This document shows positions 709 through 17,124 of a DNA stretch of 64,000 nucleotides, in pieces (the first letter of the stretch is position 1; each line of letters opens with the position of its first letter). The position numbers and the translations under genes are program-made. Source of the DNA: Saccharothrix sp. HUAS TT1 (GTDB lineage: Bacteria; Actinomycetota; Actinomycetes; Mycobacteriales; Pseudonocardiaceae); contig NZ_CP160454.1 in NCBI RefSeq assembly GCF_040744945.1, forward strand, positions 62,001-126,000. Direction: 5' to 3'. A model generated the notes under the pieces. The model saw nothing but the letters and a program-made list of their open reading frames with translations. It was not told the origin of the DNA and searched no databases.

Positions 709-1803
709 TCAGGACAGCTGTTGCATGGCCTGGACAAGCTCCGTGAACTCGACGTCGTCGAGGTGTGAGCGCAACGCCTCGGCCAACGCGACGGTGTCGC
801 GCTCCTCGATCCGGATGACGATCGCCGGCTTGGGCGCACGAGCACGCTCCGGCTTCGCGGGCTCCTGCTCGCGAGGCGGCTCGTCCTCCCCGACGCCGCT
901 CACCTCGTCGGTACGCTCCGCGTCACCCAGGTCGGTTGCGGCCCCGGACCCGGCAGGTGGCGCGAGCGGGTCGGCCGTCGCGCCGGCACCGGCGGGCACA
1001 TCGGGCCGGAGGGGTGCAGTCGCGGCGACCGGCGTCGCGCCGATAACCGGGTTATCAGCCTTCCACGCCCCTCCCGACCAGAAGTCGGAACGCTTCTCCT
1101 CCGGCAGCGCGGCGGCGCGCAGCCACACCTCCTCCTGCTCCTCACGAGGCAGGCGGGCGAGAAACCGGCCCTGCTTGGCCGAGAGGCGTTCGCCCTTGAT
1201 CTCGGCCTGGAGCTCCGGGATGAGCTGGAGCAACTTGAGCAGGTGATTGACCCACGGCTGGGACTTGCCGACCGCCTCGGCCACCTTCCGCTCGTTGCCC
1301 AGCTCCTTGACCTTCTCGGCCAGCCAGTAGGCCAGGCGCAGAGAATCGAGGTCCTTGCGGTGGACGTTCTCGTGGATGGGGATGTCTTCCAGCATCTCCG
1401 AGGTGATGCGGTCCCGGACGATGCACTCCATCTCCGGCGTCCCGTTGAGCTTGTTGGCGGCGCGGCGCCGGTTGCCCGCCATCACCACCCACAGCTTGCT
1501 GATCCTCTCGTCCGGCCACCGCTCCAGGAACACCTCGCGCGGAACGACCACGGCCGGCTGCTGCTGCGTGATGAGCGCGATGGACTTGGCCAGCTCGACC
1601 GTCCTGGGGTCGTCCTCGATGTCCTCGTCACGGGCGTTGCGCGGGTTGTAGGCGATGTCGCCGAGCGGGATCATCATCAACCGCGCACCGGGCACCGTGC
1701 TCGACACGGCCGCGTCCGGCGTCAGCCTTGCCGGGTCCACGCCGGCGTCGTTCGCCCGCCGCAGGTCCTTCTTCTCCTTGGCCTTGTCGAGTAGCCCAGC
1801 CAT
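709..1803 (-). CDS. parB: ParB-family partition protein
   Basis: A 364-residue centromere-binding protein. The N-terminal CTP-binding fold carries the ParB box signature GNRRRAA at about 110-116 and ENVHRKDL at 145-152. A helix-turn-helix follows at about 171-195 (VAEAVGKSQPWVNHLLKLL). Then comes a long Pro/Ala/Glu linker (about 250-320) and a short C-terminal segment that probably dimerises (EERDTVALAEALRSHLDDV). The ATG at 1803 overlaps the parA TGA by one base (TGATG), so the two are translationally coupled. One parS-like palindrome lies inside this gene at 1042-1056, in the linker. Role: loads on parS and forms the nucleoprotein complex moved by ParA. High confidence in family; that it serves a plasmid or phage-plasmid is inferred. 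Confidence 0.93.
   Translation of the reverse strand: MAGLLDKAKEKKDLRRANDAGVDPARLTPDAAVSSTVPGARLMMIPLGDIAYNPRNARDEDIEDDPRTVELAKSIALITQQQPAVVVPREVFLERWPDERISKLWVVMAGNRRRAANKLNGTPEMECIVRDRITSEMLEDIPIHENVHRKDLDSLRLAYWLAEKVKELGNERKVAEAVGKSQPWVNHLLKLLQLIPELQAEIKGERLSAKQGRFLARLPREEQEEVWLRAAALPEEKRSDFWSGGAWKADNPVIGATPVAATAPLRPDVPAGAGATADPLAPPAGSGAATDLGDAERTDEVSGVGEDEPPREQEPAKPERARAPKPAIVIRIEERDTVALAEALRSHLDDVEFTELVQAMQQLS
1042..1056. promoter_or_regulatory. parS: parS-like palindrome, site 2, inside parB
   Basis: Core GATAACC-G-GGTTATC within the parB coding region, where it encodes the linker residues DNPVI. It is identical to the core of site 1. A centromere site inside the partition gene's linker avoids disturbing folded domains. 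Confidence 0.7.
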
Positions 1804-2690
1804 CAGGCCGCCTTCCCCACGAAGTTCAGCACGCCGGTGTAGGCGTTGACGAGTTCCTGAGCGTCCTTCCCCTGGGCCGCGGTGATCGGCACCCGGGCCA
1901 GGCGAGCCTCCTCGCGGATCACCCGCTTCGGCACGACGACGGGCAGGACCCGATCCTTGAAGTCCTCGCGGAACTTGTCCTCGATGAGCTGGGCGACCCT
2001 GGTCTTCCGGTCGACGATGTTGCGCACCATGCCGACATCGATCAGCTTCCGCGGGTTCGCCTGGTCCATGAACCGGCGGGTCCGCAGCGCATCGGCGATG
2101 CCCACGTAGCCGTCCTCGGTCAGGGTGCCGGGGTAGAGCACGTGCGTCGCGGCCAGAAGACCGGATGCCACCAGCTTGCCGCCTGGCCGCGGTGGGAAGT
2201 CGATGACCACGAGGTCGAACTCCTCGGCCACACCCTCCAGGGAGACCCGCAGGCGGTGTTCCAGGTTCGGGGTGTTGTCGTGCTCGCGGTTGCCGAGCGC
2301 CCGGTCGGCGGCGAGGACCTTGACGTTCGGCCCCCACTCCTCACCGGCGTCGCGGAGCGCCTGCGCGGCCAGCCCGCTCAGCTCCGGCAGCTCGTCGGGG
2401 TCGGCCGCGGTGTCCACGTAGAGCAGGTCGTTGACGGAGAACTCGCCCTCCGTGGCGTCGAGCTGCTCGGTGAGCGAGGCCCGCGGGTCCAGGTCGACCG
2501 CCAGGACGCGCTTGCCGTTCGCGGCCATGACGGCGACGAGACCGGCTGACAGCGCACTCTTGCCCACCCCGCCCTTCTCGCTGTCGACCGCCAGGATCAC
2601 AGGCCCGGACGGGTTCCAGACGAGCTTCATCTCCCGGTGGAGCTGCTTGTCGAGGAGATCCCAGGCGCTCTCGTAGATCGTTGTCGTCAC
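1803..2690 (-). CDS. parA: ParA-family partition ATPase
   Basis: A 295-residue P-loop ATPase. It has the deviant Walker A box KGGVGKS (39-45) with both lysines, the A' motif VLAVDLDP (62-69), and a Walker B-like stretch LVVIDFPP near 160. An N-terminal extension of about 28 residues precedes the ATPase core and may act in DNA binding or autoregulation. The GTG start at 2690 is preceded by GAAGGG six bases upstream. It is the first gene of the parA-parB pair, and parS-like site 3 lies about 155 bases upstream, where ParB binding could also repress the operon. Role: the ATP-driven partner that positions ParB-parS complexes for segregation. Confidence 0.95.
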   Translation of the reverse strand: MTTTIYESAWDLLDKQLHREMKLVWNPSGPVILAVDSEKGGVGKSALSAGLVAVMAANGKRVLAVDLDPRASLTEQLDATEGEFSVNDLLYVDTAADPDELPELSGLAAQALRDAGEEWGPNVKVLAADRALGNREHDNTPNLEHRLRVSLEGVAEEFDLVVIDFPPRPGGKLVASGLLAATHVLYPGTLTEDGYVGIADALRTRRFMDQANPRKLIDVGMVRNIVDRKTRVAQLIEDKFREDFKDRVLPVVVPKRVIREEARLARVPITAAQGKDAQELVNAYTGVLNFVGKAA

Positions 2691-11013: not shown

Positions 11014-11745
11014 TCACGCGTCCGCCGACGCCACCGCGACCTCGATGTCCGGCCAGTCGTCGACCAGGATCATCAGCCGCGGCGGCACCCCCACCGGCAC
11101 GTCCCCGAGCACGCCGGCCGACACCTCCGCCGCCACCGGTTCCGGCGCGGCGGCCGGAAGCGGCCACTCGTGCGTGCCGTCGCAGCGCCGCTGGTACGGG
11201 TCGTGCCGCTTGTGGTGCCGCAGCCGCCCGTCCATGCGCAGCTGGTACTCGCGCTCGCACACCGGGCACACCCCGCGCGGCTTACGCGGTCGGTTCGGGT
11301 CGGCCTCCCGGCGCGGTGTCCGACGGATGTGCGGATGGCGCACCACCGGCATCGGTGCGGGTAGCGGTGGTACGGACGGTTGCGGCGTGCGGTGCTTCGC
11401 TTCCGACGGCACGGGCGCCGGGGTGGTGTCCGCCACCACGGCGCGGTCGGTGACGGGCGGCGCGCCGTGGTGGAAGTCCAGCAGCGCGTGCACCCGCAAC
11501 CGGACATCGTTCGGAAGCCGGCTCAACGCGGTGCGCGCGGAGTTGACCTCCATGCCGAAGATGCGGGCGATGTCCGCCACCCGGTACGTGTAGGCGGTCG
11601 CCAACAAGACGACCAGGGCGTTGCGCACCTCCGCGTCCGTCGTGACCCTCACCAGCAGATCCGGCGGACCGGATCGCGCTGTCCGCGCGCCCCGGACGAG
11701 ACTGGGGGCCAGCGCATCGAGCAGGGCGGCGGGGTCGCGGTTCAT
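11014..11745 (-). CDS. HTH and zinc-finger protein linked to methylases
   Basis: 243 residues. A helix-turn-helix at about 53-77 (YRVADIARIFGMEVNSARTA) is followed by a long Pro-rich linker. A C2H2-like finger CPVCEREYQLRMDGRLRHHK comes near 160-180, with a further Cys and His after it. An acidic C-terminal segment ends the protein. Its ATG overlaps the stop of the methylase upstream (TGATG), making it the fourth gene of the operon 14751-11014. Two DNA-binding modules beside two DNA methylases suggest a regulator or target-binding partner; this is inference. Confidence 0.75.
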   Translation of the reverse strand: MNRDPAALLDALAPSLVRGARTARSGPPDLLVRVTTDAEVRNALVVLLATAYTYRVADIARIFGMEVNSARTALSRLPNDVRLRVHALLDFHHGAPPVTDRAVVADTTPAPVPSEAKHRTPQPSVPPLPAPMPVVRHPHIRRTPRREADPNRPRKPRGVCPVCEREYQLRMDGRLRHHKRHDPYQRRCDGTHEWPLPAAAPEPVAAEVSAGVLGDVPVGVPPRLMILVDDWPDIEVAVASADA

Positions 11746-13067
11746 CACTGCCTCCCGGACGGTGTGGCGACAGAGTCTTCGGAACACATTCGGTGCCCAC
11801 GCGATCCCGGTCGGGTGATCATCTCCCGGTGGGTGGGGGCGCGTCGGGCGAAACGGTCGGCGCTCTCCGCGGCGTGCACCGCGTCGCGGATCGCCGTCCA
11901 CACCAGACCGCGCGCCGGAACAGCCGGCGTGGCCGGTTCGCCGCGCACACCCTGCACGACCCGGACCGTGTCGCCGACCGGCGGCCGGTTGCGGTGCACG
12001 AGGATCACCGTCGGCGTGCCGTGGCCGGGGATGTAGGCGCCGGAGCAGTCGATGATCCAGCGGGCGTCGAACCTGGGCAGCCAGTCCTGTACGTACTTGC
12101 GGCCGAACTCCCGCTTCATGAAGCTGTTCGCGGTGAGCTGGGCGCACCAGCCGCCGTCGACGAGCAGCCGCATCATCAACGAGTGGAACGGCAGCGCCAG
12201 GCTGTACTTCCCGGAGCACACCTCGGGGTAACGGGCTCGGATCGCCGCGTTCGCCGCCGGATCCTTCGGGGTGATGTAGGGCGGGTTCGCCAGCACCACC
12301 TCGTACCGGGCGGGCGCGAGCAGCGGATGCTCGTCGAGCAGGCTGTCCGCCGCGTGCACGTGCAGCGGAAGGTCTCGCAGCACACCGAGGTCGTGCCGGT
12401 GCCGCAGCCGGGCCCACGCCAACGCCACCATCCGGTAGCGGGCCACCAGCACCGCGTACGGGTCGAGGTCGACGCCGTGCACCCGGTCGGCGGCGGCGAA
12501 CAGGTTCTCCGCTCCACCCGGCCCACTGCCCACGATCCGGGTCCAGGACTCCAGCAGCAGGTGCCCGGTGCCGCACGACGGGTCGATGATCCTGGGCGCC
12601 GCCCAGTCCTCCACCGCCCGGTCGTAGGAGACGCGCAGCAGCAGGTCGGCGACCCACCACGGGGTTTGACACAAAGCCCGGTTCTTGCGGGACTCCACCG
12701 AAAGCGCCTGGTAGAGGTCGCCCAGCGGGTAGGACCACCACAGCACCGCCGTGTCGTCGGGCACCGCCCGGCGCCGCTCCCACAGGCCGCGCACCTCCGG
12801 CCGGCTCGTGTCGACGTCGGCCAGGCCGTCCAGGGCCGGGTGCAGGCGGGCGACGTCGGCCAGGGACGAACCCAGTCCGATCCGGCGGGCGTGCTGTTCC
12901 AGGGCGGCGGCGTGCACCGTGACCGCCGCCGCCTGCCGGCCGACGTCATCGGCGAGCCCGTCGCCGACCCGGCCCGCGTCGGCGAGCAGGTCGCGCGGCA
13001 GGAACGGCTGGCGGTCCGCGACCGGCGGCTCCGCCGGCTCGACCCGCACCGCCGCGTCCGCGTTCAC
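11745..13067 (-). CDS. N6-adenine DNA methyltransferase B
   Basis: 440 residues. SAM-binding motif I DPSCGTG at 162-168, preceded by QTPWWVADLLL, and catalytic motif IV NPPY at 261-264; the order is that of gamma-class adenine methylases such as Eco57I-type. After NPPY comes a typical target-region pattern (ALPFHSLMMRLLVDGG, NSFMKREFG). The GTG start shares four bases (GTGA) with the stop of the preceding methylase. At 440 residues it lacks a nuclease domain, so it is an orphan or a subunit. Together with methylase A it probably modifies the element's own DNA. Confidence 0.88.
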   Translation of the reverse strand: MNADAAVRVEPAEPPVADRQPFLPRDLLADAGRVGDGLADDVGRQAAAVTVHAAALEQHARRIGLGSSLADVARLHPALDGLADVDTSRPEVRGLWERRRAVPDDTAVLWWSYPLGDLYQALSVESRKNRALCQTPWWVADLLLRVSYDRAVEDWAAPRIIDPSCGTGHLLLESWTRIVGSGPGGAENLFAAADRVHGVDLDPYAVLVARYRMVALAWARLRHRHDLGVLRDLPLHVHAADSLLDEHPLLAPARYEVVLANPPYITPKDPAANAAIRARYPEVCSGKYSLALPFHSLMMRLLVDGGWCAQLTANSFMKREFGRKYVQDWLPRFDARWIIDCSGAYIPGHGTPTVILVHRNRPPVGDTVRVVQGVRGEPATPAVPARGLVWTAIRDAVHAAESADRFARRAPTHREMITRPGSRGHRMCSEDSVATPSGRQ

Positions 13068-14257
13068 ACCGACTTCCGTCCCGTCGTGGCGGTTTCCCCT
13101 CCGGCGGGCCGGACGCCGCCCGCGAGGACCAGTTCGGTGTTGACGACCGGAGCGCGGGAGATCCACACCAGTGAGCAGTGCACCGAAGCCCTGTCGGTGG
13201 GCCACTCCAGGTTCTTGATCGCGCGCCAGATCGTGCCGCCCTCCGCGACCACCTGGTCCAAGCCGACTTCGCGGGTCGCGCCCTGGGCGATCGTGTTGGT
13301 GAACACCATCCCGAGCTGCCCGCCCCGGTGCAGCAGGTCGTGGGCGCGCAGCAGGAAGTACGCGCTCAGGTCCGCGCTGCCCCGACGACCGCGGCCCACC
13401 TCGCGCACCAGCCGCTCCCGGTAGTCCCGGCCCAGCACGCCGGTGATGCGCCCGCCGCCCAGCCACGGAGGGTTGCCCACCACCGCGTCCAGTCCCGGCC
13501 ACGGCTCCAGGTGCGGCCACAGCAGCACCGGGTCGGTAAGCAGCGCGTCACCCGGCACGACCCGGGTGGCCACCTCGGCGTCGACCCGGGCGTGCGGCGC
13601 CAGCAGCGCCAGGCACAACCGGGTCGACGCCACCGCCAACGGGTCGAGATCCACCCCGTACAGGCAGGACCGCACCACCCGTTCGGCGACCGCCCGCCGC
13701 GACACCGCCTCGTCCAACCCCGCCTGCACCAGGGCCGCCGTCACCGTGTCCACCAGGTCACGGGCGGCGGCCACCAGCAGCGCCCCCGAACCGCACGCGA
13801 TGTCCGCGATCCGCAGTCCCAGCAGCTGCTCCAGCGGACGCAACCGCCACACCTCGGTGTCGGCGGTGTGCAGCGGCCCCACCGCGGCGACGGCGGCGCG
13901 CACGGTGTGGCGGGCGATCTCCGTCGCCAACCACGGCGGGGTGTACACCGCGCCCACCCGGTCCTGCGACGGCCACGCCAACATGCCGTCACCCGGGCAG
14001 TCGTCATGGCCGTCCGCGCACCAGTGCCGCCCCAGCCACGTCACCCCACCCCGACGACGGGCCAGGATCGACAGCCCGACCGCCAGGTCGAACAGGGCCG
14101 GCTCGTCGCCGTCGGGCGTGTGCAGCCGGTCCATCCGCGAGGACAGGCGCACGGCCGTCTCCTCCGCGACCTCCGCCAAGCCGTCCGGGTCGACCGCGCC
14201 GTCCCGGTCCGCCAGCGCCTGGTCCACCAACTCCGGCAGCACCACGGCCGGGTTCAC
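13064..14257 (-). CDS. N6-adenine DNA methyltransferase A
   Basis: 397 residues. AVYTPPWLATEIA at 103-115 precedes motif I DIACGSGAL at 152-160, and motif IV NPPW is at 262-265. The same layout as the next gene suggests duplication, although overall identity looks low. A Cys/His cluster CADGHDDCPGD at 80-90 is unusual for the family and may bind metal. The GTG start overlaps the upstream gene by four bases. NPPW in place of NPPY/F is a known variant. No restriction nuclease is present nearby, so a protective or regulatory role is more likely than classical restriction. Confidence 0.85.
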   Translation of the reverse strand: MNPAVVLPELVDQALADRDGAVDPDGLAEVAEETAVRLSSRMDRLHTPDGDEPALFDLAVGLSILARRRGGVTWLGRHWCADGHDDCPGDGMLAWPSQDRVGAVYTPPWLATEIARHTVRAAVAAVGPLHTADTEVWRLRPLEQLLGLRIADIACGSGALLVAAARDLVDTVTAALVQAGLDEAVSRRAVAERVVRSCLYGVDLDPLAVASTRLCLALLAPHARVDAEVATRVVPGDALLTDPVLLWPHLEPWPGLDAVVGNPPWLGGGRITGVLGRDYRERLVREVGRGRRGSADLSAYFLLRAHDLLHRGGQLGMVFTNTIAQGATREVGLDQVVAEGGTIWRAIKNLEWPTDRASVHCSLVWISRAPVVNTELVLAGGVRPAGGETATTGRKSV

Positions 14258-14751
14258 CGCCCACCACCCGGTGCGGCTCGGGGCGTCGACGCGGCCCCGC
14301 CGGCGGAGACCGTTGCCGGTCGCGCCGCGCGGGCGGCGATGCTGTGGCGGTGGGCCGTGCCGGGATCGGCGACCACCCCGCCCGGATGCAGGGCCGCGCA
14401 CCAGTGGATGCCGTACCGGATGACGCCGCCCGGTTCGTGCGCCAACAACGCCGTCCCGCGCGCCAGCGCGGTCGCCGCCGACGCCGTGCGCTGCCGGGCG
14501 CGTGCGTCGCGGCCGGGGAACTGGAGGGCGTCGCCGCAGGAGGCGATGGTGGCCGCGTCGCGGGCGGCGACCTCCCGACGCCGCGTGGCGTCCCACCCGC
14601 GCGTGTGGGCGATCATCAGCGGCACCGCGAACGACAGGAACTCCCGCAGGCCCTCGATCCACACCGCGGTCCGGTCCCGCCCGGCGTCGACCTCGGCAGG
14701 ACCGGCCACCACGGGGTCGACCACGGCGGTGCCGCCCGCGCCCGGCATCAT
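14254..14751 (-). CDS. first gene of methylase operon, unknown
   Basis: 165 residues, with a start at the first of two ATGs (14751) after GGGGAGG. Contains a hydrophobic segment FLSFAVPLMIAHTRGWDA near 40, then Arg/Ala-rich sequence; the last 40 residues look disordered. It shares four bases with methylase A, so it belongs to the same operon. The tRNA lies upstream on the same strand with tandem repeats between. Not recognised. Confidence 0.6.
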   Translation of the reverse strand: MMPGAGGTAVVDPVVAGPAEVDAGRDRTAVWIEGLREFLSFAVPLMIAHTRGWDATRRREVAARDAATIASCGDALQFPGRDARARQRTASAATALARGTALLAHEPGGVIRYGIHWCAALHPGGVVADPGTAHRHSIAARAARPATVSAGGAASTPRAAPGGGR

Positions 14752-14830
14752 CGCCGGCCTCCCCGGGTTCCGGTCGCCGTCGGGGTCGTCGAGCGCGTGC
14801 TCCGGTCGTGGCGCATGGTGTCCTCCGCGT

Positions 14831-14890
14831 CGGGATTCGTGGACTTTCTCCGGGATTCGTGGACTTCGGTCAGGATTCGCGCGGACTTCC
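14831..14890. repeat. three tandem 20-base repeats
   Basis: Units begin at 14831, 14851 and 14871. Units 1 and 2 share GGGATTCGTGGACTT and unit 3 is diverged (GGATTCGCGCGGACTT). They fill the gap between the tRNA 3' end and the methylase operon. They could be binding sites or a remnant of duplication at the tRNA. Confidence 0.7.
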
Positions 14891-14893
14891 GCG

Positions 14894-14970
14894 TGGTGCC
14901 GCCGGCGGGATTCGAACCCGCACATGGCCCGCTTTTAAGGCGGCTGCCTCTGCCATTGGGCTACGACGGC
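14894..14970 (-). tRNA. tRNA with UAA anticodon and short variable loop
   Basis: Read on the reverse strand. The 7-bp acceptor stem pairs 14970-14964 with 14904-14898 (one U-G). A 3-bp D stem GCC/GGC, an anticodon loop CTTAAAA closed by a 4-bp CCGC/GCGG stem (27-43 mismatched), a 5-bp T stem with loop TTCGAAT, A73, and an encoded CCA complete it. The anticodon is UAA, reading UUA (Leu). Bacterial leucine tRNAs have a long variable arm (class II); this one has only about six bases there, a class I shape. Charging with leucine is therefore uncertain. It lies alone, 189 bases from an MFS gene carrying a TTA codon. Confidence 0.88.
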
Positions 14971-15157
14971 CAGGTCGGACCAGGATGTGGCCGGCACGTC
15001 ACGGCCGGCGGCGGACGCCCCACCCGGAGGAAGCGGGAGATCGGGTGGGACGCCGCCGGCCACCGGACGCGGACGCGCGCGTGCTCCGCGTGCCGGTGCC
15101 TTCCGGAATGCCCCCGCGTGGCCAAAAACGCCGGGGCGTCGGGTCTGTGCGGGCCGG

Positions 15158-16468
15158 TCAGCCGGGTAACAGCGGCACCGGCCGACCGGCCGCCTTCGAC
15201 CGTGCCCGTTCCGGTCGCGGGGGACGCGGCCGGACCAGGGCGGCCACCACCAGCGCGGCGGCGGTCAGCACCGCGGCCACCGGCGGCACCAGCTCCACGC
15301 CCGCCAGGTCGGCGACCGCGCCGCCCACCGCGCCCGCGCCGGCGATGCCCAGGTAGATCGCCGACGCGTTCAGCGCCAGCCGCATCCCCGCCTGCGCCGG
15401 GTCGACCGCCACCAGCCCGGCGAACAACGGCGGGTTGAACGCCCAGAACAGGCCGCCCCACACCACCGCCACCGCCACCGCCGGGCCCGTGCCCGCCGCG
15501 ACGGCGGGCGCCAGGACCGCGAGCAGCGCCGCGCACCCGGCCAGCACCACCAGCAGCGGCGTCCGGCTGCCCCACCGGTCCGCCGCCCGGCCGCCCAGCA
15601 CGTTGCCGACCACGCCGCCCGCGCCGAACCCGAGCAGCACCACCGCCGCGTCGACCCGGCCGCCGCCCGCCACGAGCACGGCCAGGTAGCCGTAGGCGGC
15701 GAACGTGCCCAGACACGCCAGCAGCGACACCGCCAGCAGCCGGCGCGTCGACCGGTCCCGCAGCACGCCGAGCCGCCGCCGCAGGCCTGCGGCGGGACCG
15801 GCGGGCACGGCGGGCGCGGCCAACGCCACCAGCACGCCGGCCGCCCCGCACAGCCCGGCCGCGAGCAGGAACGCCGCCCGGTAGTCGCCCGCCAGGTCGG
15901 TCACCAGCCTGCCGGCGGGGACGCCCAGGACGGTGGCCGCGGTCAACCCCGCGGTGACCACGGCCATCGCCCTGCCCCGCGCGCCCGGCGGGTTCGTCTC
16001 GGCCGCCAGCGCCGTGGCGGCCGGGGTGGTCAGCGCCGCGCCCAGCGCCGTCACCACCCGGGCCGCCAGCAGCCAGCCGAAGCCGTCGGCCGCCGCCGCA
16101 CCGAGGTTCCCCGCCGCGGTCACGATCAGCGCTGCCACCAGCAGGGTGCGCCGCTCCCACCCGCCCGTCGCCACCGCCAGCAGCGGCGCGGACACCGCGT
16201 AGGCCAGGGCGAACGCGGTGATGGTCTGCCCGGCCTGCGGTACCGACACCTCCAGCCCGGCAGCGAGTTCGGGCAGCACGGCGGCCACCAGGTAGCCGCT
16301 GGTGCCGGCGGCGACCGTCGCCCCGGCCAGGGCGTAGGTGCGCGGACGCACCCGCGCCGCCCCGGCCGGTTCGGGTCCGGCCAGGGCGGGACCGGTCGGT
16401 CCGGTCCCGGTCGAGCCGGTCGGGGTCGGCTCGACCGGGACCGCACCGGCCGGGGACCGGCGACCCAT
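15158..16468 (-). CDS. MFS drug-efflux-type transporter
   Basis: 436 residues with about twelve hydrophobic segments. After a Pro/Thr-rich N-terminal tail of ~40 residues, the DHA1-type pattern is visible: GPxxD-like loop, GGWERRTLL between TM2 and TM3, RVVTALGAALTTPAATALAA, and a central loop RLRRRLGVLRDRSTRR splitting two six-helix halves. Likely exports a small hydrophobic compound by proton antiport. The ATG at 16468 overlaps the preceding stop (TGATG); a GTG one codon earlier is less likely. A TTA leucine codon occurs third from the end (15167-15169), the only in-frame TTA I found in the window. Confidence 0.9.
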   Translation of the reverse strand: MGRRSPAGAVPVEPTPTGSTGTGPTGPALAGPEPAGAARVRPRTYALAGATVAAGTSGYLVAAVLPELAAGLEVSVPQAGQTITAFALAYAVSAPLLAVATGGWERRTLLVAALIVTAAGNLGAAAADGFGWLLAARVVTALGAALTTPAATALAAETNPPGARGRAMAVVTAGLTAATVLGVPAGRLVTDLAGDYRAAFLLAAGLCGAAGVLVALAAPAVPAGPAAGLRRRLGVLRDRSTRRLLAVSLLACLGTFAAYGYLAVLVAGGGRVDAAVVLLGFGAGGVVGNVLGGRAADRWGSRTPLLVVLAGCAALLAVLAPAVAAGTGPAVAVAVVWGGLFWAFNPPLFAGLVAVDPAQAGMRLALNASAIYLGIAGAGAVGGAVADLAGVELVPPVAAVLTAAALVVAALVRPRPPRPERARSKAAGRPVPLLPG

Positions 16469-17124
16469 CACGCCACCCCGTCCAGCAGCGGCGCCAGCAG
16501 GTTGCGCACCACCGCCACGTTGGCGTGGTCGATCGCCGGCTTGTAGACGCGCTCGGCGGCGACGGCGAACGGCTTGCCCCTGCGCTCCAACGTCGCCAGC
16601 GACCGCAGCACCGGCACGTCGTCGTCCTCGTCGGGCAGCGCCGGCGGCATCGACAGGTCGTCGTACTCGGGTTCGCCCGGCACCACCGGGAACACGTACT
16701 GGGTGTGGCGGGCGCCCGCCGCCAACGCCCCCAGCGGGGTGTGGCCCGCCGTGAACGCCTCCAGCTCCGACCCGGCCAGACCCAGCCGGCCCGGATGCAC
16801 CAGCGAGTCCACCGCGGCCAGGTGCCGCCCGTACCGGTCACCGCGGGCGACCAGCCAGCCCCGCCGCAGCAGCACCTCTGTTCCGGCCGGCAGGCGCATC
16901 AGTCGCGCCTCGTGCTCGCTGAGCAGGTGCGTCGTGTCCGGCACGCGGGCCACGCGCGCCAGCCCGCCGCCCAGGCCCAGCCAGGAGGTGAACACGAACG
17001 TGAAGTGGAACCGCAGCCCGCACAGCAGGTCGCCCAGGTACTCCACCCGGCCGTCGTGGTTGTCGAGATCGGGACTCGGCACGGTGACCCGCTCCGGGTG
17101 CGCGTAGGCCGTGAAGCTCGTCAT
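16468..17124 (-). CDS. chorismate-lyase-fold-like protein
   Basis: 218 residues. The central stretch LPAGTEVLLRRGWLVARGDR ... DSLVHPGRLG ... FTAGHTPLGALAAGA follows the pattern of the UbiC/chorismate lyase and DUF98 fold (a hydrophobic pocket with 'R...L...G...A.S.....R.........PLG'). The match is by eye and the identity low; substrate unknown. It overlaps the zinc-type gene upstream by four bases (ATGA) and the MFS gene downstream, so all are cotranscribed. It may bind or make the small molecule exported by the pump, which is inference. Confidence 0.55.
   Translation of the reverse strand: MTSFTAYAHPERVTVPSPDLDNHDGRVEYLGDLLCGLRFHFTFVFTSWLGLGGGLARVARVPDTTHLLSEHEARLMRLPAGTEVLLRRGWLVARGDRYGRHLAAVDSLVHPGRLGLAGSELEAFTAGHTPLGALAAGARHTQYVFPVVPGEPEYDDLSMPPALPDEDDDVPVLRSLATLERRGKPFAVAAERVYKPAIDHANVAVVRNLLAPLLDGVA

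What the first reader, a model, noticed from the sequence alone, without database searches (positions are those of the whole stretch)
14894..14970. A class I-shaped tRNA with a leucine-type UAA anticodon
Seen: full cloverleaf, loop CTTAAAA giving anticodon UAA, encoded CCA, but only about six bases in the variable region. Known: bacterial tRNA-Leu(UUA), including actinomycete bldA, is class II with a long variable arm recognised by LeuRS. A short-arm UAA tRNA would either be charged by another synthetase or be a poor leucine tRNA. That could recode or slow UUA codons.
Basis: partly seen in the sequence, partly recalled or inferred. Interest (0 to 1): 0.85.

Follow-up and report, generated by a model that had tools for sequence, protein, structure and literature searches.

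The report
Short-armed leucine tRNA on a plasmid
The gene looks like a working leucine tRNA that lacks the long side arm textbooks ascribe to bacterial leucine tRNAs, and this short shape turned out to be the commoner one for reading the UUA codon in the related genomes sampled.

Summary
Window 14970-14894 (minus strand) is a complete class I tRNA: anticodon UAA, six-base variable region, encoded CCA. It is not unique. This genome has eight leucine tRNA genes; six are class I, and the only UAA, CAA and UAG genes found are class I. Of 197 genomes of the class, 121 match a class I UAA pattern, 29 a class II (bldA-type) pattern, none both, 47 neither. The class I genes here keep the leucine determinants known from E. 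coli and a leucine-type D arm. In eight genomes (GC 43-50%) where only class I UAA was found, UUA codons fall on conserved leucine columns in 219 of 224 cases, 158 of them counted in two genomes of one genus. So UUA is very unlikely to be recoded: this is a leucine tRNA that does without the arm. The window copy is an extra one on a 200-kb plasmid-like contig. A 2023 review says tRNA-Leu has a long arm everywhere except animal mitochondria (PMC9976931, passages); in print I met only scattered notices to the contrary. Charging was not tested.

The parts
14894..14970 (-). Class I tRNA-Leu(UAA) gene, 77 nt including CCA
   Evidence: ARAGORN, RF00005 54.3 bits
14964..14970 (-). 5' half of acceptor stem (GCCGUCG), pairs with 14898-14904, 7 of 7 standard pairs (one U-G)
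14945..14963 (-). Positions 8-26: leucine-type D arm UAGCCCAAUGGCAGAGGCA, 3-bp stem, A14, A15, G18G19, A20a
14935..14937 (-). Anticodon UAA in loop CUUAAAA
14922..14927 (-). Variable region CCAUGU, six bases, no arm; last base U48 can pair with A15
14905..14921 (-). T arm GCGGG-UUCGAAU-CCCGC
14898..14904 (-). 3' half of acceptor stem (CGGCGGC)
14894..14897 (-). Discriminator A73 and encoded CCA

Best explanation
The gene is an intact leucine tRNA of a short-armed (class I) family that reads UUA. It is charged with leucine by the cell's single LeuRS, which recognises A73 and the D-loop/T-loop core rather than the variable arm. In this genome the class I form is the only form found for UAA, CAA and UAG; the window copy is an additional UAA copy on a plasmid-like contig. 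Shown: structure, family, distribution, kept leucine determinants, UUA = leucine in other genomes with class I UAA only, one LeuRS gene over the cut-off. Inferred: charging by LeuRS, expression of this copy, that contig C2 is a plasmid (a separate 200,347-bp contig with a ParA-like gene).
For: Structure. RF00005 gives 62 matches in the genome, 60 over the cut-off; ARAGORN reads a tRNA at each of these 60 and at neither of the two below it. Eight are leucine: six class I, all six with A14, A15-U48, GG, A20a and A73, and two class II (CAG, GAG). Leucine-type D arm (GGNAGA with a 3-bp stem): 6 of 6 class I Leu, 2 of 2 class II Leu, 0 of 51 other distinct tRNAs of the genome. A D-arm pattern with anticodons YAR gave 8 hits: 7 of these leucine tRNAs and one place where ARAGORN finds no tRNA. 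One LeuRS over the curated cut-off; its best PDB matches are bacterial leucine--tRNA ligases (that 1h3n is from T. thermophilus and 3zgz from E. coli is recalled). 121 of 197 genomes of the class match the class I UAA pattern (30 of 30 fetched loci confirmed by ARAGORN; backwards-pattern control 1 hit), 29 the class II pattern (20 of 20 fetched confirmed; control 4 hits), no genome both. Stem pairs of 145 unique class I UAA sequences are standard in 2875 of 2900 cells, with several pair types at most positions. UUA codons of genomes with class I UAA only: 219 of 224 conserved columns are Leu, 5 Val; controls in the same class I set: CUG 609 of 641, AUC 16 of 1103. In one of them, G303, all six tRNA matches of 79 nt or more were read: Leu(UAG), Leu(GAG), Tyr and three Ser, so no class II UAA. 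E. coli LeuRS needs A73, A15-U48, G18G19 and A20a but not the long arm, and tRNA-Leu variants lacking that arm remain active (PMC9976931, passages).
Against: No charging or expression data. No sigma-70-like promoter found within 14750-15250 (a consensus scan, weak in high-GC genomes). G27-G43 mismatch. The codon test was done in other genomes, not on this copy or this genome, where UUA is too rare (3 UUA in 59,580 codons of crude C2 gene calls). Two genomes of one genus (G205, G303) supply 158 of the 224 columns, and the absence of class II UAA was checked tRNA by tRNA only in G303; in the other seven it rests on the pattern. The determinant set alone is not exclusive to leucine: 3 of 51 other tRNAs of the genome (one Ala, two Lys) have it. 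Outside the variable region the window tRNA is 0.81 identical to tRNA-Lys(CUU), as close as to four of its own class I leucine relatives (0.84, 0.82, 0.81, 0.78; the fifth is not among the 12 best) and closer than to the genome's class II leucine tRNAs (best 0.69).
Confidence: 0.88

Rival explanations
1. The tRNA is charged by another synthetase and recodes UUA.
For: It lacks the arm usually named as typical of leucine tRNAs; outside the variable region it is 0.81 identical to tRNA-Lys(CUU) of the same genome and only 0.69 to its best class II leucine tRNA there.
Against: UUA columns are leucine in 219 of 224 cases in genomes with class I UAA only; leucine-type D arm in none of 51 non-leucine tRNAs of the genome; determinants known for E. 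coli LeuRS kept.
Confidence: 0.03
2. It is a leucine tRNA of low efficiency or regulated supply, which limits translation of rare UUA codons, as bldA does in Streptomyces.
For: UUA is very rare here: 3 in 59,580 codons of C2 and 5 in 33,015 codons of chromosome samples, by crude gene calls.
Against: The same family is the only UUA reader found in genomes of GC 43-50% that use UUA in rpoB, rpoC and neighbours, so the shape is not in itself a handicap. A UUA near the 3' end of the genes just upstream of two of the three UAA tRNAs is not clearly more than chance (12 of 95 upstream genes against 65 of 859 other genes in 123 high-GC loci).
Confidence: 0.2
3. It is kept by plasmids, phages and tRNA arrays because a tRNA without a variable arm escapes nucleases that cut variable arms.
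For: Class I leucine tRNAs in phages, viral contigs and a plasmid array; [quoted passage not shown] methylase genes with best PADLOC matches PglX and DrmMI lie next to the window gene.
Against: No nuclease that cuts the arm of tRNA-Leu was looked for in the hosts. In a viral scan not selected by class, UAA leucine tRNAs were more often class II (69 class II and 8 class I in 98 new stretches; 22 further stretches had already come up in the class I scan, of whose 120 stretches ARAGORN confirms 117). It does not explain the chromosomal copies.
Confidence: 0.12
4. The gene is a dead remnant or an attachment site of an integrated element.
For: Solitary extra copy beside defence-type genes; G27-G43 mismatch; no promoter-like site.
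Against: Score 54.3 bits, within the range of the other five class I leucine tRNAs of the genome (54.2-56.8 bits); otherwise complete stems, A73 and CCA; the only full-identity match in the genome is the gene itself, so no second copy of the 3' end was seen at E 0.001 (short repeats would be missed).
Confidence: 0.08

Closest known systems
bldA-type class II tRNA-Leu(UAA) (29 genomes; the name bldA and its link to Streptomyces come from the literature)
   Same: Anticodon UAA, A73, A14, A15-U48 (19 of 19 distinct sequences), reads UUA
   Different: Long variable arm; GAC instead of GAG in the D arm of the pattern; none of the 29 genomes matched the class I pattern
Mycobacterium tuberculosis leuX (Leu_TAA) and leuV (Leu_CAA)
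   Same: Listed as 74-bp genes in a table (PMC9336784, passages), the length of class I; the MenT3 paper names Leu-2, 3 and 5 as having a long variable loop (PMC11541572, passages)
   Different: Chromosomal; sequences not fetched here; the short arm is not remarked on in the passages I saw
Cluster-encoded tRNA-Leu(TAG) of the Mycobacterium mucogenicum clade
   Same: Short variable loop, against a normal larger loop in the copy elsewhere in the genome (PMC6582537, passages)
   Different: Anticodon TAG, in a tRNA cluster
Animal mitochondrial tRNA-Leu
   Same: No long arm; charged by a LeuRS mainly through A73 and A14 in the human case (PMC9976931, passages)
   Different: Organelle; its own LeuRS; floppy anticodon arm
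Class I tRNA-Leu of phages, e.g. Streptomyces phages Karimac and Yaboi (taa), Mycobacterium phage Kykar (taa), SparkleGoddess (tag, caa), Corynebacterium phage StAB (caa)
   Same: Same core and short arm
   Different: Phage-borne; the SparkleGoddess pair has an extra base in the D loop

Membership tests
Bacterial class II tRNA-Leu | Long variable arm (10 nt or more) | tested here: not met
   6-nt variable region
Class I tRNA | Cloverleaf with a short variable region (4-5 nt as usually given, PMC7609411, passages; 6 here) | tested here: met
   RF00005 54.3 bits, variable region 6 nt
Leucine tRNA | A73, A14, A15-U48, G18G19, A20a (determinants reported for E. coli and other LeuRS) | tested here: met
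   determinants from PMC9976931 (passages)
Leucine tRNA | Leucine-type D arm: GGNAGA and 3-bp stem (my own criterion, from the leucine tRNAs fetched) | tested here: met
   6 of 6 class I Leu, 2 of 2 class II Leu, 0 of 51 others in the genome; elsewhere 1 of 203 and 0 of 26 non-leucine tRNAs
Leucine tRNA | The codon it reads is translated as leucine | tested here: met
   In eight other genomes with class I UAA only, 219 of 224 conserved UUA columns are Leu; not testable on this copy itself
Leucine tRNA | Charged with leucine by LeuRS | not testable with these tools
   one LeuRS gene over the cut-off in the genome
bldA | Developmentally supplied class II UUA tRNA | tested here: not met
   The class II part is not met, and no class II UAA was found in this genome; regulation was not examined

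The most novel reading that the evidence does not exclude
In most lineages of this bacterial class the class II UUA tRNA has been displaced by a short-armed leucine tRNA whose relatives also circulate in phages, plasmids and tRNA arrays; in some genomes, as here, the CAA and UAG leucine tRNAs were displaced too. The mutually exclusive distribution, the mobile relatives and the forms with 7-9 nt in the variable region fit either arm erosion or replacement by a mobile gene, possibly driven by nucleases that attack variable arms.
Probability: 0.35. Interest if true: 0.75.

Novelty: new variant of a known kind. Interest (0 to 1): 0.6.

Why it matters
Leucine tRNAs are taught as class II throughout bacteria, and a 2023 review says so for all organisms and organelles except animal mitochondria (PMC9976931, passages). 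If more than half of the genomes of this class use a class I tRNA for UUA, as the sample suggests, then LeuRS recognition without the arm, known from E. coli variants, is used in nature on a large scale. [quoted passage not shown] here it would mislead. bldA-type control of UUA would belong to a minority of these lineages. Short-armed UAA tRNAs in phages of Streptomyces offer a direct test of whether a class I tRNA can stand in for bldA.

Tried and rejected
Recoding of UUA: made very unlikely by the codon-position test. Pseudogene: score, stems and CCA speak against it. Second LeuRS dedicated to class I tRNAs: only one LeuRS passes the cut-off. Attachment-site duplication: the only full-identity match in the genome is the gene itself. 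Upstream genes ending in a UUA codon as a regulatory device: seen at two of the three UAA loci of the genome, not clearly enriched over 123 high-GC loci. Similarity between the two ends of contig C2: none found, so circular or linear form stays open. A shared neighbourhood: a relative of the NADH dehydrogenase gene of L013 lies in 33 of the 119 named class I UAA loci, which speaks for an old chromosomal site in part of the lineage; it was not sought near the window copy. Literature: ten searches; none listed a paper whose title or abstract start describes class I leucine tRNAs as standard in actinobacteria. Only openly licensed PMC papers are held, so this is weak evidence of absence.

Limits of the counts: 47 of 197 genomes matched neither strict pattern. 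Nine of these were fetched after a looser search whose listing was cut: six are class II, three have 7, 8 and 9 nt in the variable region; 38 remain unresolved. The other matches beyond the 30 and 20 fetched loci are pattern matches only; one extra hit in G167 is no tRNA by its look. In the named scan 108 of 112 unique class I UAA tRNAs carry the whole determinant set and one has G15-C48. One search mixed four phage stretches into the viral scan; recounted without them, 117 of 120 stretches hold a class I UAA tRNA. In one search one of 120 class I UAA tRNAs has U73 in my parse. For one search, 17 of the 20 genomes located were fetched (G294, G225 and G120 were left out); the class II genomes give too few UUA columns to compare (4 of 5 Leu).

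Full report
What is there. The stems are complete apart from a G27-G43 mismatch; the variable region is CCAUGU; A73 and CCA are encoded. The window lies in a 200,347-bp contig of a two-contig, 8.7-Mb genome. The contig carries a ParA-like gene at window 1803-2690 and a second tRNA, Gly(CCC); I take it for a plasmid, which is an inference.

The genome. RF00005 gives 62 matches, 60 over the cut-off; ARAGORN reads a tRNA at all 60. Eight are for leucine: six class I (UAA three times, UAG twice, CAA once) and two class II (CAG, GAG). The class I UAA genes are the window copy, one in a region of many small genes that looks phage-like to me (L012), and one beside, among others, a gene with a Pfam pyridine-nucleotide oxidoreductase match that I read as an NADH dehydrogenase (L013). 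One UAG gene is in a six-tRNA array next to predicted proteins that I recognise as phage terminase and portal; no family search was run on them. A pattern for the leucine D arm with anticodons YAR gave eight hits, seven of these tRNAs and one site with no tRNA. So no class II tRNA for UAA, CAA or UAG was found, and the class I genes must serve UUA, UUG and CUA unless something was missed.

The lineage. Two patterns were run over the same 197 genomes of the class. The class I UAA pattern matched 121, the class II pattern 29, and no genome both (I compared the two tables by eye). The backwards-pattern control gave 1 and 4 hits. All 30 fetched class I loci and all 20 fetched class II loci were confirmed by ARAGORN. 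Nineteen of the 29 belong to one genus whose sequences look like bldA. Of the 47 left over, nine were read later: six class II, three with a variable region of 7 to 9 nt. A named scan, stopped at 119 stretches, shows class I UAA in Mycobacterium, Nocardia, Rhodococcus, Gordonia, Corynebacterium, Nocardioides, Microbacterium, Arthrobacter, Streptosporangium, Pseudonocardia and others; 103 of the 119 loci hold no other tRNA, and 11 hold ten or more, among them arrays in cyanobacteria, Chloroflexi and Planctomycetes. In the single-contig genome G071, of the same order, UAA and CAA are class I and CAG, GAG and UAG class II (10 of its 45 tRNA matches were read, all eight of 83 nt or more among them). 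In a phylum-wide sample whose listing was cut, genomes of another family (f27) have class I CAA or UAG next to class II UAA or CAG. In M. tuberculosis, leuX (TAA) and leuV (CAA) are listed at 74 bp (PMC9336784, passages).

What it inserts. In 17 genomes I took the rpoB region and aligned eight protein families. Only columns with at least eight other sequences, 80 percent of them agreeing, were counted, leaving out residues encoded by UUA in the others. UUA codons of genomes with a class I UAA match fall on leucine in 219 of 224 columns, the rest valine; CUG gives 609 of 641, AUC 16 of 1103. The UUA columns come from eight genomes of GC 43 to 50 percent, seven of one family; G205 and G303, of one genus, give 158 of them. 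In G303 all long tRNAs were read and none is a class II UAA. UUA is thus leucine where the class I tRNA is its only reader found.

How it works. E. coli LeuRS depends on A73, the A15-U48 pair, G18G19 and A20a, not on the long arm, and tRNA-Leu variants without the arm remain active (PMC9976931, passages). All six class I genes of the genome carry this set with A14, as do 28 of 30 in the class survey and 108 of 112 unique ones in the named scan. The set alone is also found in 3 of 51 other tRNAs of the genome, but the leucine-type D arm is found in none. One LeuRS gene passes the cut-off. The simplest account is charging by LeuRS. That step is inferred. Against it stands only the general similarity of the window copy to tRNA-Lys(CUU), 0.81 outside the variable region, with 0.69 to the best class II leucine tRNA of the genome.

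Mobile relatives. The window tRNA matches 83 phage records (20 listed: 15 annotated tRNA-Leu, 2 tRNA-Lys, 3 without annotation at the place) and 18 records of the plasmid collection, one of them of chromosome size. These are similarity counts, not all leucine tRNAs. Read in full as class I leucine tRNAs were those of phages SparkleGoddess, StAB, Yaboi, Karimac and Kykar and of the Mycolicibacterium alvei plasmid array. In the viral scan for the class I pattern 117 of 120 stretches hold a class I UAA tRNA, median GC 0.40. In a viral scan not selected by class, 98 new stretches held 69 class II and 8 class I UAA tRNAs, and 22 stretches had come up in the class I scan. Class I is thus a sizeable minority there. 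[quoted passage not shown] nothing here tests that.

Known or new. Short-armed leucine tRNAs are in print as isolated facts: a TAG copy in a mycobacterial cluster (PMC6582537, passages) and gene lengths in M. tuberculosis. [quoted passage not shown] I found no paper that states the pattern described here, within the ten searches named under Tried and rejected. The locus itself is one more copy in a family that annotation programs already call tRNA-Leu; the surprise lies in the family's extent.

Noticed in passing
L417 (1498-1571) and L418 (1492-1566): Streptomyces phages Yaboi and Karimac encode class I tRNA-Leu(taa) of 74-75 nt, while bldA of their hosts is class II (recalled); such phages might translate UUA without bldA.
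   Followed up: partly
L187, L191, L204, L245, L259: tRNA arrays of 15-34 genes in which four leucine isoacceptors (five in L191) are class I.
   Followed up: partly
L519, L520, L521: UAA leucine tRNAs with 7, 8 and 9 nt in the variable region, between class I and class II.
   Followed up: partly
window 11745-13520 and 13064-14662: Two overlapping ORFs with DNA methylase matches on the minus strand, best PADLOC matches PglX and DrmMI, just downstream of the tRNA; no partner genes were sought.
   Followed up: no
window 15158-16471; L013 9897-10967: The genes just upstream of two class I UAA tRNAs both end UUA-CCC-one codon-UGA, although UUA is very rare; not clearly enriched in 123 high-GC loci.
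   Followed up: yes
L013 9897-12213: A 47-aa ORF, an ORF that looks ATP-grasp-like to me (no Pfam hit) and a nitroreductase-family gene sit beside the chromosomal UAA tRNA, like a small peptide-modifying cluster.
   Followed up: no
L072 (C1:2197908-2198053): Two tandem low-scoring tRNA genes, Val(CAC) and Ser(GCU), with nearly the same unusual D arm and class I shape.
   Followed up: no
C1:255022-255095 and C1:1458041-1458123: Class I Leu(UAG) and class II Leu(CAG) share the whole anticodon stem-loop but for base 34; outside the variable region this UAG gene is as close to the class II CAG gene (0.75) as to its class I relatives (0.74), which suggests exchange or common origin.
   Followed up: partly
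L242: A class I tRNA-Leu(UAA) as the only tRNA in 8 kb of the cyanobacterium Synechococcus lacustris.
   Followed up: no
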